From Cristatella mucedo (taxonomy: Eukaryota > Bryozoa > Phylactolaemata > Cristatellidae): a DNA stretch of 64,000 bases. The stretch spans positions 346,001 through 410,000 of the forward strand of contig WPIO01000163.1 in the NCBI GenBank assembly GCA_009760855.2. The letters run 5' to 3'. The notes under the pieces are model-generated. The model worked only from the letters and a program-made list of their open reading frames with translations, made no database searches and was not told the origin of the DNA. Positions 15,414-26,608 of the stretch are shown here, in pieces. How positions within the stretch are numbered: the stretch's first letter is position 1; every line of letters starts with the position of its first letter. The position numbers and the translations under genes were made by a program.

Positions 15414-15580
15414 TTAATGCCTTATGCCAGCCGCCACGAGCGGCGTTGCCGCCGCCGGTATCACGTGGTTGCTCCATGATACCGGCGCCGGTGGCAAGCT
15501 TTGGCCCTTCTGCCGCATCTCGCTGATAAAAACGCCTGCAGCCGAGATATCTGAGCACTCGCGGAATTTCATCTGCGGTC
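15414..15580 (-). CDS. Juxtamembrane-type exon, phase 2 to phase 1 (JM-E)
   Basis: An unusually long pyrimidine tract (about 50 bases, 15581-15640 read on the minus strand) ends in CCGCAAG before the exon; the donor is CATTAA|GTACGT. It enters in phase 2, as required after the transmembrane exons of genes B and C, and leaves in phase 1, as required for the tail exons. The 55-codon peptide contains ADEIPRVLRYLGCRRFYQRD and GIMEQPRDTGGG. It is probably intracellular, with no known domain. The matching tail could be 10276-10433. Confidence 0.45.
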
Positions 15581-17031
15581 CTTGCGGAAGGAGAAGAAGG
15601 AAAAAGGAGACGAAGGAGAAAAAGGAGAAAATTAAAAATATACGACGTTCAAGGCAGCCGGTCAGCATGCTTACTATAAAGAGGACAGCGGTACGCTCGC
15701 GGCTGCCGTGCAGCGATAGTAGCATGCAACATCGTTATTTCCTGCTCTAATGTCTCTCTCGGAGCGTTCTCTTGCACTCTGCTGTACCGCCGGACACTCT
15801 TCCGCGCTAGCGGTAGAGTGTCGCGCTTTGGATGGCTACGGCGGTCGCTCCGCAGGCACTAGCCCAGTGCCGCCCCTCGTTTCGAAGTGAGCAGTTGCAG
15901 TTATCACTTTGCTGCACGCGCTCGAACCTTTGCCGGGACCGCAACGCTGAAGGCTATATAGTACTGGATTGTGAGAACGTCGGCCATCCTTGTAAGAGGG
16001 CGCATCGGGTAAACAGCGAGCTCAACCGACAGTGGTTCGCCCGGAAGCGACATCGGCTGACCGTCTAGAGATAATATTCTGAGCGTTGGCGGTGTTCGAG
16101 AAGCTGAGATTCCGGGCTCGAGCCATCGGGTGGCTGAGATTTTTCCCAGTCAGTTCTGGAGACCTTGCAAATCTGGATTCCGTGTCGCCGCGACGCTAGG
16201 GGCGACGCCGACCAAAACGAGGCTGCCGAAATTATACAGTCCTACGACTCGGCGGCTGCAGGCCGCGACTGGCGACCCATCCGTTCTTAATGAGCCGTCG
16301 CCTGAAAATAGGTACGGCTGACTGGCTGACGAGAACATCTTCGCGGCGATTCATACGTCGTAACAAAAATTATTTGGGTATTTGGGAATGCAAAGACGTT
16401 CTTTCTTTTGCTGCACAGCGAGACCGGGAAACTACTCCGCCGGCTGAGTTAGCGTGGTCGCAGCTCGCGTGCGTTCTTGCGAAAGAGTGGGGAACAGAGA
16501 GGCGGAGGTTAGGAAAGGCGGAATGAGGCCATCATAGTTCCATGGCGCAGCGGTCAGACTCGTCGACGGCTTGCGTGCCGCATAAATGAATCGAAAAAGG
16601 ACGGGTAAACACGTGTAGTGACGGACGTAGTAAGCACGCGCACCTGTTCACGTACACGCGCACCCACATGCACATGTGCACTGTATATATATGCAGATGC
16701 ACTTTGTAGCAGGCAAATAAATTAGGTCCAGTGGAAAAGGCAGACATGGACTGATATTATTGAAGGCGGAAGTAGAGGTAGAAGGTAGTAGCAAAGAAAT
16801 GAGCGTATCACTGCCGAGCAAGCCAAACGTTGACAGCGTGCTTGACTATTTTTTTCAGAATACCAACTTTAAAGCTTGTCAGCCCGTACGCAGCTCCTTT
16901 TCAGCAGCTGCGTTTTCAGCAGCTACTTTTCAGCAGCTTTTTTCTCCAGTAGTCGCGCTGTCGACGAAGAAAAAACCGTAAGAAAAAAGGCCATTTCCCT
17001 TAAGCCAAAGCGAAATTACTGAACCTTGACC

Positions 17032-17190
17032 TGTCCAAGCAAGCGACCGTGCACGCGACGAGTACTTCCGTCCGCCGCAGCTCGCCGTGCGAGCCGACGA
17101 AGACCTGGCGCCGCACGTAGCGGCGCGCAAGCTCCTTAACGACGCCGACTCTCCAAGCCGAGCGCCAAAGGATGGCAGCGCGCCAACTGG
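17032..17190 (-). CDS. Ambiguous exon candidate
   Basis: The minus frame reads VVKELARRYVRRQVFVGSHG and then ELRRTEVLVACTVACLD up to a donor GGACAG|GTCAAGG. The plus frame over the same bases also looks coding (LAPHVAARKLLNDADSPSR), as happens in GC-rich DNA, so the strand is uncertain. No family is recognised. Confidence 0.22.
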
Positions 17191-17555
17191 CCGACCTGCG
17201 GTCTCCTCAGTAATTCATTCTCGTTCAACTCGGCGGCGGCGGCGGCGGCGGCGGCGGGGCGTCGAGAGGCCGCGAGACGGCGGCGGCATTTCTCGCCAGC
17301 TAGCGCGGCGGAGCGGCCGCTCGCCGGCTTGGTCTGTAATGGCTAACGGAGGGGCGGCGGAAGCGGACGCCGCCAGCTCGTCTCTGTCTGCTCGAGAGGC
17401 ATGCGCGGCGAGCGTCGCTGTGACGCCCAAGGTCTGCGATCTGCGAATTCCGTCGCGCGCGTGCGCGCGCGCGCGCGATCTCTCGCCTGCCGAGCTCGTA
17501 GGGTGACGCTCGGCGCGGCCAGCGGTCGTGGCCTGGTCTGCCGGCTCCTTCTAGC

Positions 17556-17668
17556 GCATGACAGCAGCAAATGTAAAGCATCTAGAGAAAAAACGACTAA
17601 CTTCTCCGAGGGCGCTTTATCAAGTGTATTATTATTTATTATGCATTATTATTATTATATACATCCTG
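17556..17668 (+). mobile_element. LINE A 3' tail fragment
   Basis: GTAAAGCATCTAGAGAAAAA and GAGGGCGCTTTATCAAGTG are followed by (TTA)n, the conserved last 60 bases of LINE A with its simple-repeat end. Confidence 0.75.
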
Positions 17669-18398
17669 CCGCCACCCAGCTCGCGCCGGCCATGGCGGCA
17701 CGCGTACGCGATCGCACGTCTCGCTTTCTCGCAGTGCGCGTCGCGTGGCATTTCGCGAGCTCCCAGTCAGCTGTAGCCGAAGGATTTCGCACTGGGAAGC
17801 GAAAACACCTCGCACTCGCCAGCGTCGATACGTTCTTTGTACGCGCGTCGCCCAGTTTGTTCGCTCGCTGATGAGCGGTGGCGTAATGCTGCAATCGAGA
17901 ACACTATAAATATCACTCTTCTTGTAGTTTTGTAAAAATATATATAATTCGCCCGGCGTAGTGATAACTCGCCGGCGGTTGCGAGCTCTGCACCCGCTCT
18001 GCGCTCTCGCTGCCAAAGCGAAGGTGAAGGCCAGCGCCAAGCGCCAGCCACAATGAGCGGCGCCCTCGCACAGACGCTCGACTCTCTAGAGCGGCAAGAG
18101 CTGGCGCTGGAGCGTCGTCGTGCTGGGCGTTGCCGATCGATGGCGCGCGCGCGCGCGCGACGGTCGATTAACACGGCGTTCTCTCTGCGCCCACCGTCGC
18201 CGACGCGGCCCGGCGAGGAGGCCATCGAACGATCGACCGGCCGCCAGCCCGACGGGGCGGCCTTCCTTCGGTCGCCGCAGCGCCGTAGCTACAGGTCGAT
18301 CGGTGGCGCGCGCAGGCAGCTCGGTGCGCGTCGACGTCGCTCCGTTGCACCGGTGCCCGCAGCGGCGGCCGCCGCTTTGCTCGGCTCAGCCAGCCGGC

Positions 18399-24439: not shown

Positions 24440-24830
24440 GCTTCTTTATACCTTGCTGAACTGATGCACTAGCAAGACCTCCCTCCTCACACCCTCAGAT
24501 CCTGTGCGGACGATGCATTTGCTGTTCCATTCCGACGTTTGAATACAGTTGGCGACCAAAGCTGTTGCTGTGCTGGGCCTAGCATTAGCACACCGACACT
24601 TCCACAGTTCCTCCTCACCGATCATCTTTGACCCTGCTGCTGCCGACTGTGACGTATCTTATCGTGTAATCCTGAGGGGCGCTACATCTATGCTGATCGC
24701 TTCCTCAGGTGCCCCCTGACTCAGTTATGCTTCTGACTTAGGCTTTGTCGCATCATTGCCGTCTGTTAGCTGCCGCATGTGAACCGAAAGCCCGATAGAC
24801 TTTACATGCTCCACAGATATCGCACTAGCG
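24440..24830 (+). mobile_element. LINE B, degenerate 3' end of ORF2
   Basis: Retains the order of the LINE B C-terminus (CTTGCTGAACTGATGCA, CACCCTCAGATCCTGTG, GGCGACCAAAGCTG, ATGCTTCTGACT) with many indels. Confidence 0.55.
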
Positions 24831-25099
24831 TAATGCCCACTCAGTCCCTGTGGCAGTGTAGAATTACAGACGAGGATCCATTAGATTACGAATGTGTAAT
24901 TTTTAAGTAGCTGACAGGAGCAGCGCAGAAGTAACAGTTACGAGTCCTTACACCGCGGTACGAGCTCAGATTGGCAGGGAATATGTAGTAGTTTACTTTC
25001 ATCTCAGTGGATGTAGGCGAGGATTTAGTGTTGCCTGTGCATGGGACTTGACGGTGGGGTAGATAAAAATAAATACTAAGGAGAAGGTGCGCGCGGGGA

Positions 25100-25168
25100 A
25101 AAAAGAAAGAGACAGGGAGGGAGAGAGAGGGAGAGAGAGAGAGAGAGAGAGAGAGAGAGAGAGAGAAA
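25100..25168 (+). repeat. (GA)n microsatellite
   Basis: GA dinucleotides with few interruptions. Confidence 0.9.
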
Positions 25169-26302
25169 GAAAAAGCAGATCGAGTGAGATCTCAGTACAA
25201 CGTTACTGCACCAGACCGAATCAAGCAGCTACAGGCGCCACTTACGGGCCGCAGTCGTTCCAGCAAGAGGAGCATTGTTCGTTAGAACTAAAAAATAAGA
25301 AAGAAAAAATGTCATTTTTGTGTACATTTTCAACTACAATCCCGATGCGGCACATGAAGGGCTCATATTCTTCATAAAGGCGCTAGGAGTCACGCGTGCT
25401 TAGCACTTACGATTTGTCACTGATAATTTATAGGCACAGTAATACAAAAGGAGAATTAAAGAATCTAGAACTGCTGAATGCTTCACGTATAAGGTAGTGA
25501 AAACCTTCATTTGATAAAGAAAGCTTATGGCAACGATCGAGCAATATAAATCAGGGCGATCAGCACCTACCCTTTACCTAGCTACAACCCTTAAGGCTGT
25601 ATTAATCCTTAGACTGCCAGCGAGTGTAATATATTCAAAAAAGTCTTTTATGTTAAGATATATTTTAGAAAGTGAGAGCTATATTCTTTTGAGAAGCATG
25701 GAATATCTTAGTACATAACTTCATTTAACTATATGTGGCCTAGAGTTAGTTCAACAGGTGTAAGACATATCCCACCAGGCTCAAACGTTGACCATAGCCA
25801 CCGAGAATTGTCAGAGTAAGTTCATTAGCGTCCTTAGATCGGGCAGAATCTTCTTGATTAGGCAAGGGCTAGTAGAGGTAGGAATTAAAACTGTGCAAAC
25901 GCATCTTGAAGGTTGGGTTGAACGTTGTCTCTATTAACACGATACTTGAGGAAGAAAGTGTAACATCAGCATGCTGGACTCTATTATTGATACGATATGA
26001 TTAACAATAACTAATTAACTAATACATAATTTGATATGAATAATCTCAATGTGGGACTCTAGAATCTCTAGAATAGAATGGCGATCTTAAATACAGAGAG
26101 TACAAGCCTTAAATCAACGTTCAATCTTTTACGCCGACCAGAGTGTACTCGTGAACAACCCGCAATTGGTAAACCGAGAAGCACTTTAACATGTGACTTA
26201 GCACACGCGGAATAATAGCATGCCCGAAGTAAGATATGGCTGCGTATGCTGTGCAAAGGCGAACCCAAGTGTCCCAACTGTGCAAACGAATGATCGACTT
26301 AC

Positions 26303-26608
26303 CGCCGCCGCACGAATAGTTGATCTTAATTGAGACGATATTGCAGCTTTTGTCCAGTTTCATCTTTATTTGATCGAAGTCAGGCGAGCAGCTGCTGGCA
26401 CCATTGCTGCACAGCTGGTACAGATAGCTTGTCATTGGGGCGTCGGCAGTGGGCCCACAAAACGTGGAATCATTATAGCAAGCTGAGTAGGTAGCGACCG
26501 CTAAGATCTGCAGTGGCTGACTTTGACCGCATATAATAGATGACAGGCCAGTAGATAGAAGACATAGGGTCGAAGAATAATTCGTAGCTTTTGCAGTGAC
26601 ATTCGTCC
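26303..26608 (-). CDS. SUEL-like lectin domain exon of gene B
   Basis: The acceptor GATCTGCAG and donor GCGGCG|GTAAGT bound a 306-base, phase 1/1 exon. The peptide begins GTNVTAKATNYSSTL (two N-glycosylation sequons), then IICGQSQPLQILAVATYSAC, a CGPTADAPMTSYLYQLC segment and SCSPDFDQIKMKLDKSCNIV with IKINYSC at the end. The Cys layout and the closing (V/I)xIxYxC follow the galactose-binding SUEL lectin fold, used in extracellular ligand or cell-surface binding. Similarity to the family is weak, so the domain call is tentative; the exon itself is well supported. Confidence 0.55.

What the first reader, a model, noticed from the sequence alone, without database searches (positions are those of the whole stretch)
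15414..26608. Possible choice of alternative cytoplasmic tails downstream of one transmembrane exon
The gene B transmembrane exon (22345-22456) leaves in phase 2. Three downstream entries on the same strand all accept phase 2: tail B directly (22261), the micro-exon 19077-19111 leading in phase 1 to tail A (18877), and the exon 15414-15580 leading in phase 1 to a tail at 10433. No second transmembrane exon was seen between 21454 and 10276. Phases, GT/AG borders and order all fit one receptor with interchangeable signalling tails. The alternative is two more paralogues whose membrane exons were missed.
Basis: partly seen in the sequence, partly recalled or inferred. Interest (0 to 1): 0.8.

Follow-up and report, generated by a model that had tools for sequence, protein, structure and literature searches.

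The report
Membrane protein gene, possible second tail
An animal-like gene for a small membrane protein is followed by two genuine-looking tail-coding stretches but only one good membrane-spanning exon, so it may choose between two inner tails, although nothing here proves that it does and a third proposed tail looks like chance.

Summary
The window looks like animal DNA (572 Mb assembly). On the minus strand, gene B reads signal peptide (34.0 kb), eight-cysteine ectodomain (26.3-26.6 kb), transmembrane (TM) exon 22345-22456 and tail B, with phases 1-1-2. A sibling, gene C (63.4-51.0 kb), has the same phases. Between 21453 and 10300 no TM-like exon has a positive splice score.

Tails B and A look coding: with tail C they are the top three of 670 ORFs in 104 kb, tail A by a small margin. 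Tail A has no TM exon of its own. An alternative last exon of gene B is the simplest reading, but unproven.

Tail B is entered best at 21979, not 22261. The micro-exon link to tail A (9.9) scores below a link through 21204-21078 (28.4). An equally good micro-exon arises in 10-14% of shuffles.

The third branch (15414-15580 to 10433) fails: no coding signal, chance-level borders, and a one-base length difference inside the tail in a second assembly copy. Short indels between copies mean phases are not base-exact.

Verdict: two-way choice possible, three-way not supported. The ectodomain matched no family searched.

The parts
33953..34052 (-). Gene B signal-peptide exon from its ATG; leaves in phase 1
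   Evidence: ATG and hydrophobic stretch read by eye; donor CTCG|GTGAGC score 3.0.
26303..26608 (-). Gene B ectodomain exon, phase 1 to 1, eight cysteines (counted by eye)
   Evidence: acceptor 1.0, donor 5.5; no other match better than E 2 in the genome; no Pfam family up to E 10.
22345..22456 (-). Gene B transmembrane exon, phase 1 to 2
   Evidence: acceptor 4.84, donor 5.0.
21454..21979 (-). Tail B terminal exon, entered in phase 2 (best entry), 174 codons and stop
   Evidence: Coding z 7.2; best parse 26.9 against -19.7 for entry at 22261; first AATAAA at 20852.
21078..21204 (-). Candidate linker exon, phase 2 to 0, that could join the TM exon to tail A
   Evidence: Acceptor 2.2, donor 3.9, coding z 2.4; as good in 11-13% of shuffles.
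19077..19111 (-).
   Evidence: Donor 8.25, acceptor -1.84; coding z -0.9 over 11 codons.
18399..18887 (-). Tail A terminal exon (start 18887 phase 0, or 18877 phase 1, or 18690 phase 2); 162 codons and stop from 18887
   Evidence: GC by codon position .64/.64/.88, z 7.5; first part 18887-18699 z 3.8; best segment 18704-18429 ranks 3 of 670 ORFs; no other match better than E 0.7 in the genome; first AATAAA at 17640.
15414..15580 (-).
   Evidence: GC by codon position .70/.59/.54, z 1.1; chance level; single copy.
10276..10433 (-).
   Evidence: z -0.4; one substitution and one one-base length difference inside it in the second copy on contig C230.
55850..55934 (-). Gene C transmembrane exon, phase 1 to 2 (sibling gene)
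   Evidence: acceptor 5.2, donor 7.37.
55507..55625 (-). Gene C juxtamembrane exon, phase 2 to 1 (candidate; a shorter form 55507-55532 scores higher)
   Evidence: Acceptor 4.53, donor 3.85; parse 38.9 against 44.9 for the shorter form; coding z 1.8.
50998..51356 (-). Tail C terminal exon of gene C, entered in phase 1
   Evidence: Coding z 7.8; no other match better than E 0.7 in the genome.
57892..58278 (-). Gene C ectodomain exon, phase 1 to 1, eight cysteines (counted by eye)
   Evidence: acceptor 4.0, donor 4.1; no other match better than E 0.2 in the genome.
63348..63432 (-). Gene C signal-peptide exon from its ATG; leaves in phase 1
   Evidence: donor 8.25.

Best explanation
Gene B encodes a small single-pass membrane protein: signal peptide, one eight-cysteine ectodomain, one TM exon leaving in phase 2, then a cytoplasmic tail. 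Its ordinary ending is tail B (21979-21454), joined directly in phase 2. Tail A (18887-18399) is a second coding terminal exon with its own stop and no TM exon of its own, and is most likely an alternative last exon of gene B. The spliceosome would skip tail B and join the TM exon to tail A, probably through a linker such as 21204-21078 rather than the 35-base micro-exon. Cells would then make the same outside with one of two insides. Shown: the exon reading, the single TM exon with credible borders, and the coding character of tails A and B. Inferred: that A and B share one transcript unit, which linker is used, and any signalling role.
For: Tails B, C and A hold the three best coding segments of 670 ORFs of 60 codons or more in 104 kb, both strands (36.0, 35.2, 23.9). 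At hydrophobicity 1.9 or more and summed splice score 0 or more, the minus strand of the window has two phase 1-to-2 TM exons, those of genes B and C, besides two shorter versions of the gene C exon. Between 21453 and 10300 all 9 hydrophobic candidates have negative splice sums. Gene C gives the same signal-1-ecto-1-TM-2 plan, with one TM exon and one tail found. The best parse from TM B to tail A scores 28.4, beside 26.9 for TM B to tail B. First AATAAA signals lie 602, 759 and 690 bases after the stops of tails B, A and C, so each could end its own transcript.
Against: There is no transcript evidence. Both linkers have chance rates of 10-14%. The micro-exon route needs a very poor acceptor (-7.47). 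The best direct phase-2 acceptor of tail A is weak (18690, -1.3). Tail A's margin over the next ORFs is small (23.9 against 21.9, 20.8 and 20.3), and its best segment starts at 18704, not 18887. Splice matrices are recalled human-like ones, not trained on this species. Short indels between overlapping assembly copies (64 of one or two bases in 7.2 kb) mean phases may be off by a base. Tail A resembles tail B in a gapless YAT...STL.R register, but not significantly (p 0.09 ungapped, 0.18 and 0.29 gapped).
Confidence: 0.42

Rival explanations
1. Tail A is the 3' part of a separate transcription unit, for example a soluble cytosolic protein starting at the ATG inside the micro-exon (MARIARDPRK...), or a gene whose 5' exons were not recognised.
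For: The micro-exon holds an in-frame ATG and a very strong donor. There is a gap of about 1.7 kb between the first AATAAA after tail B (20852) and the micro-exon. A GC- and CpG-rich stretch at 20880-21450 resembles that around the gene B start, but so do 17000-18400 and 50300-51500, so it is not specific.
Against: The join it needs (19077 to 18877) has a very poor acceptor. The scans found no TM or multi-cysteine ectodomain exon with credible borders in the gap, only a hydrophobic stretch at 20702-20773 with poor borders. Micro-exon codons show no coding signal, though 11 codons carry little information.
Confidence: 0.28
2. Tail A is the remnant of a partial tandem duplication of gene B's 3' end (or of a sibling gene that lost its 5' exons) and is not used.
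For: Genes B and C lie in tandem with one plan; weak A-B similarity in matching register (not significant); no TM exon of its own.
Against: The frame is open for 231 codons from stop to stop and the third-position GC bias is as strong as in tails B and C (.88 against .84 and .86), which an unused relic would lose with time. Duplication at the DNA level was not tested.
Confidence: 0.17
3. Tails B and A are parts of one long tail: splicing from the GT that overlaps tail B's stop (after 21458, phase 2) into the micro-exon and tail A.
For: The TGA stop of tail B sits inside GTGAGC and the exit phase, 2, matches the micro-exon.
Against: That donor scores only -0.24, a level reached by about a tenth of GT sites on that strand; it still needs the weak micro-exon and tail A acceptors.
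Confidence: 0.07
4. The reader's three-way choice, with tail G at 10433 reached through 15414-15580.
For: The borders and phases exist as described: acceptors 3.07 and 3.21, donor 0.97.
Against: No coding signal in either piece; parse score -36.2; chance level; one-base length difference inside tail G in a second copy, which could itself be an assembly error.
Confidence: 0.03

Closest known systems
Arthropod Dscam (Penaeus monodon; PMC6851185, passages seen)
   Same: One membrane receptor gene in which alternative splicing selects the stop codon (exon variants 44.1 and 44.2) and reshapes the cytoplasmic tail; TM exon variants 32.1 and 32.2.
   Different: Dscam has Ig/FNIII ectodomains and transcript support. 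Here there is one small ectodomain without a known family, one TM exon, two candidate terminal exons and no transcript data.
Alternative last exons in vertebrate receptors (for example TrkB truncated and full-length forms, CEACAM1 long and short tails; recalled, no call)
   Same: Same extracellular part with exchangeable C-terminal tails.
   Different: No homology claimed; usage here is untested.
SUEL/galactose-rhamnose-binding lectin receptors (PF02140)
   Same: Small extracellular domain rich in cysteine; eight cysteines counted by eye in both ectodomains.
   Different: No Pfam match up to E 10 for either ectodomain, while a SUEL domain elsewhere in the same genome scores 8.5e-20; comparison with a small four-sequence SUEL alignment from this genome gives 2.7% and 0.2% probability.

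Membership tests
Gene with alternative last exons | At least two terminal coding exons with stop codons downstream of one shared donor | tested here: met
   Tails A and B both score as coding and have stops; one TM donor. That they belong to one transcript unit is not shown.
Gene with alternative last exons | Phase-compatible, credible splice sites from the shared donor to each terminal exon | tested here: inconclusive
   Tail B yes (21979); tail A only through linkers with chance rates of 10-14% or a weak direct acceptor.
Gene with alternative last exons | Transcripts using each terminal exon | not testable with these tools
   No RNA data available.
SUEL lectin domain (PF02140) | Match to the family profile | tested here: not met
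   None for either ectodomain; hhalign 2.7% and 0.2%; neither is among the 5 genome matches.
ITIM/ITAM immunoreceptor tails | [SILV]xYxx[ILV] or paired Yxx[LI] (recalled patterns) | tested here: not met
   None in tails A, B or C. Tail B has one YATL, two YDEP and one YQN; tail C has YCGV and YSTM.
Three-way interchangeable tails (reader) | Third tail is coding sequence | tested here: not met
   z 1.1 (linker) and -0.4 (tail).

The most novel reading that the evidence does not exclude
A small tandem cluster of orphan single-pass receptors, without detectable relatives elsewhere in its own genome, in which at least one gene swaps its whole cytoplasmic tail by alternative last exons while keeping one ectodomain and one TM exon.
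Probability: 0.3. Interest if true: 0.5.

Novelty: new member of a known kind. Interest (0 to 1): 0.3.

Why it matters
If true, one cell-surface protein of an animal without annotation here would deliver its outside signal to two different inner tails, a switch known from Dscam and some vertebrate receptors. It would also show a case where tail choice evolves by adding a whole terminal exon. If not, the locus is an ordinary small receptor-like gene followed by a duplicated or independent coding piece.

Tried and rejected
Rejected as best entry: 22261 for tail B. Considered and dropped: a hydrophobic stretch at 20702-20773 as a missed TM exon (poor borders); a hydrophobic frame in a purine repeat at 15579-15641; an exon-like stretch at 35175-35309 (z 0.7 under the first codon model; not retested). 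SUEL lectin membership was my own first guess from memory and failed.

Own errors corrected: the first codon model (used and for the codon column of 74) had 5 of 23 training loci on the wrong strand. It was retrained with strands; the same 7 of 30 loci were dropped for in-frame stops both times. The coding figures quoted as main evidence are, besides the plain base counts. One search's line for the plus-strand tail is in a wrong frame and is not used. crashed.

Led nowhere: genome searches for ectodomains B and C, tails A and B, and the TM/juxtamembrane/tail C query found only themselves as significant matches (that tool scores only its best first-look candidates); PDB sequence search for the two ectodomains, Rfam at gathering thresholds, tRNA. 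Paper searches returned 0, 1 and 1 papers; of PMC6851185 I saw passages only, of PMC3376141 only the search listing.
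Full report
What the sequence is. The window lies at C70:346001-410000 of a 572 Mb assembly in 688 contigs. All statements on splicing are therefore predictions.

Gene models. Reading the minus strand gives gene B: a signal-peptide exon ending at 33953 in phase 1; an ectodomain exon 26608-26303, phase 1 to 1, with eight cysteines (by eye); and a TM exon 22456-22345, phase 1 to 2. Gene C, further upstream on the same strand, repeats the plan: signal peptide ending at 63348, ectodomain 58278-57892, TM 55934-55850, a probable juxtamembrane exon at 55625-55507 or its shorter form from 55532, and tail C from 51356. 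A scan for TM exons with phase 1-to-2 borders (hydrophobicity 1.9 or more, summed splice score 0 or more) found these two on the minus strand of the window plus two shorter versions of the gene C exon. On the plus strand it found one good candidate (60111-60174) and two overlapping weak ones. Between 21453 and 10300 on the minus strand, with all phases allowed and laxer limits, 9 candidates appeared, all with negative splice sums.

Which tails are real. A codon model was trained on 23 of 30 protein-kinase loci of the same genome (4408 codons; 7 loci dropped for in-frame stops). It was applied to all 670 ORFs of 60 codons or more on both strands of 104 kb (window plus 20 kb each side). The top three segments are tail B (22023-21487, 36.0), tail C (51345-51001, 35.2) and tail A (18704-18429, 23.9). 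The next are 21.9 (a short plus-strand repeat), 20.8 and 20.3, so tail A leads by little. Tail A from 18887 has GC by codon position .64/.64/.88 and z 7.5 against shuffles; its first part, 18887-18699, has z 3.8; the same open frame just upstream (19094-18888) has .71/.68/.71 and z 2.1. For tail B the stretch 22260-21980 has z 1.0 but 21978-21457 has z 7.2, so the entry at 22261 is probably wrong. An acceptor at 21979 in phase 2 fits both the coding signal and the TM exit. Exon 15414-15580 (.70/.59/.54, z 1.1) and tail G (z -0.4) have no coding signal. The ectodomain exons and the gene C TM and juxtamembrane exons also score low with this model (z 1.0 to 2.4), so a low score alone does not disprove a short or AT-rich exon. 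For them the support is borders, phases and protein features.

Are the phase matches more than chance? Under block-wise dinucleotide shuffles of the stretch between tail B's stop and tail A, a phase 2-to-1 exon as good as the micro-exon arises in 10% of shuffles, and a phase 2-to-0 exon as good as 21204-21078 in 11%. For the whole TM-to-tail A stretch the figures are 14% and 13%; an earlier unblocked shuffle gave 10% for the micro-exon. For the score of the 15414-15580 exon the interval yields an equally good exon in 62% or 77% of shuffles, and four others are present in the real sequence. 'Phases, GT/AG borders and order all fit' is thus weak evidence for tail A and none for tail G.

Which link to tail A? 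Summing splice-site and codon scores, the best path from the TM exon to tail A uses 21204-21078 and the phase-0 acceptor 18887 (28.4). A direct phase-2 join at 18690 gives 21.3. The best path to tail B gives 26.9. The matrices are recalled human-like ones, so the order of the first two routes should not be trusted far.

How it most likely works. Tail A needs a partner exon that supplies a start and, if it is a cytoplasmic tail, a membrane anchor. The nearest credible upstream TM exon on its strand is that of gene B, 3.5 kb away, with tail B in between, so an alternative last exon is the simplest reading. First AATAAA signals occur 602, 759 and 690 bases after the stops of tails B, A and C, compatible with separate 3' ends. 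Against it stand the weak linkers and the lack of RNA. A separate unit starting at the micro-exon's ATG, a partial-duplication relic, and a B-plus-A composite tail remain open.

Assembly quality. The tail G stretch has a second copy on contig C230. C230:1-7385 runs alongside window 14351-7040 in two blocks with 43 mismatches in 7236 aligned bases but 64 indels of one or two bases, as in overlapping haplotigs with uncorrected reads, or a recent duplication. One such difference lies inside tail G, which speaks against its frame but could itself be an error. Five lie inside a CUB-like exon at 8497-8090. Exact phases in this assembly should be treated with care. No second copy of tails A, B or C or of the ectodomains was found, so no allelic test of their frames was possible.

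Relation to known systems. Neither ectodomain matches Pfam up to E 10, PDB sequences up to E 10, or a small SUEL alignment from this genome. The family guess I began with, SUEL lectin, is therefore not supported. Tails A, B and C lack ITIM and ITAM patterns. Working precedents for tail choice exist, for example shrimp Dscam, where splicing selects between two stop-codon exons (PMC6851185, passages). The mechanism would not be new in kind. Novelty would lie in the orphan receptor pair itself.

Noticed in passing
60111-60174 and 60518-60802 (+): A plus-strand TM-like exon with phase 1-to-2 borders (scores 2.7 and 3.08) followed by a phase-2 open tail, inside the large first intron of gene C; possibly a nested opposite-strand receptor-like gene or fragment (tail borders read by eye).
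   Followed up: partly
8090-8497 (-): CUB-like exon, phase 1 to 1 (Pfam CUB E 0.06-0.1, below its cut-off), whose reading frame looks disturbed; the copy on C230 differs by five indels of one or two bases there.
   Followed up: partly
4701-14351, against contig C230:1-9989: Overlapping second copy of this stretch in the assembly, probably an unmerged haplotig; short indels outnumber substitutions in its two best-aligned blocks.
   Followed up: partly
51152-51257 (-): Tail C holds a nine-residue repeat (GYTATTLQR, GYATTTLQR, GYATTTLQR, and a partial unit before them; by eye), an internal tyrosine-bearing repeat in a cytoplasmic tail.
   Followed up: no
7497-7583 (-), within the open frame 6660-7736: Strongly acidic open frame next to the CUB-like exon (best segment 20.3); may belong to the same gene.
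   Followed up: no
L074:415-547 (-), which is 74415-74547 on the window's scale: Another TM-like exon with phase 1-to-2 borders in the right flank (summed score 7.83); a possible further family member.
   Followed up: no
19460-19620: Long (AT)n run between tails B and A, a place where assembly length may be wrong.
   Followed up: no
22460-22560 (-): CAG/CTG-rich repeat directly upstream of the gene B TM exon, giving a poly-leucine frame; it may mimic a second hydrophobic stretch.
   Followed up: no
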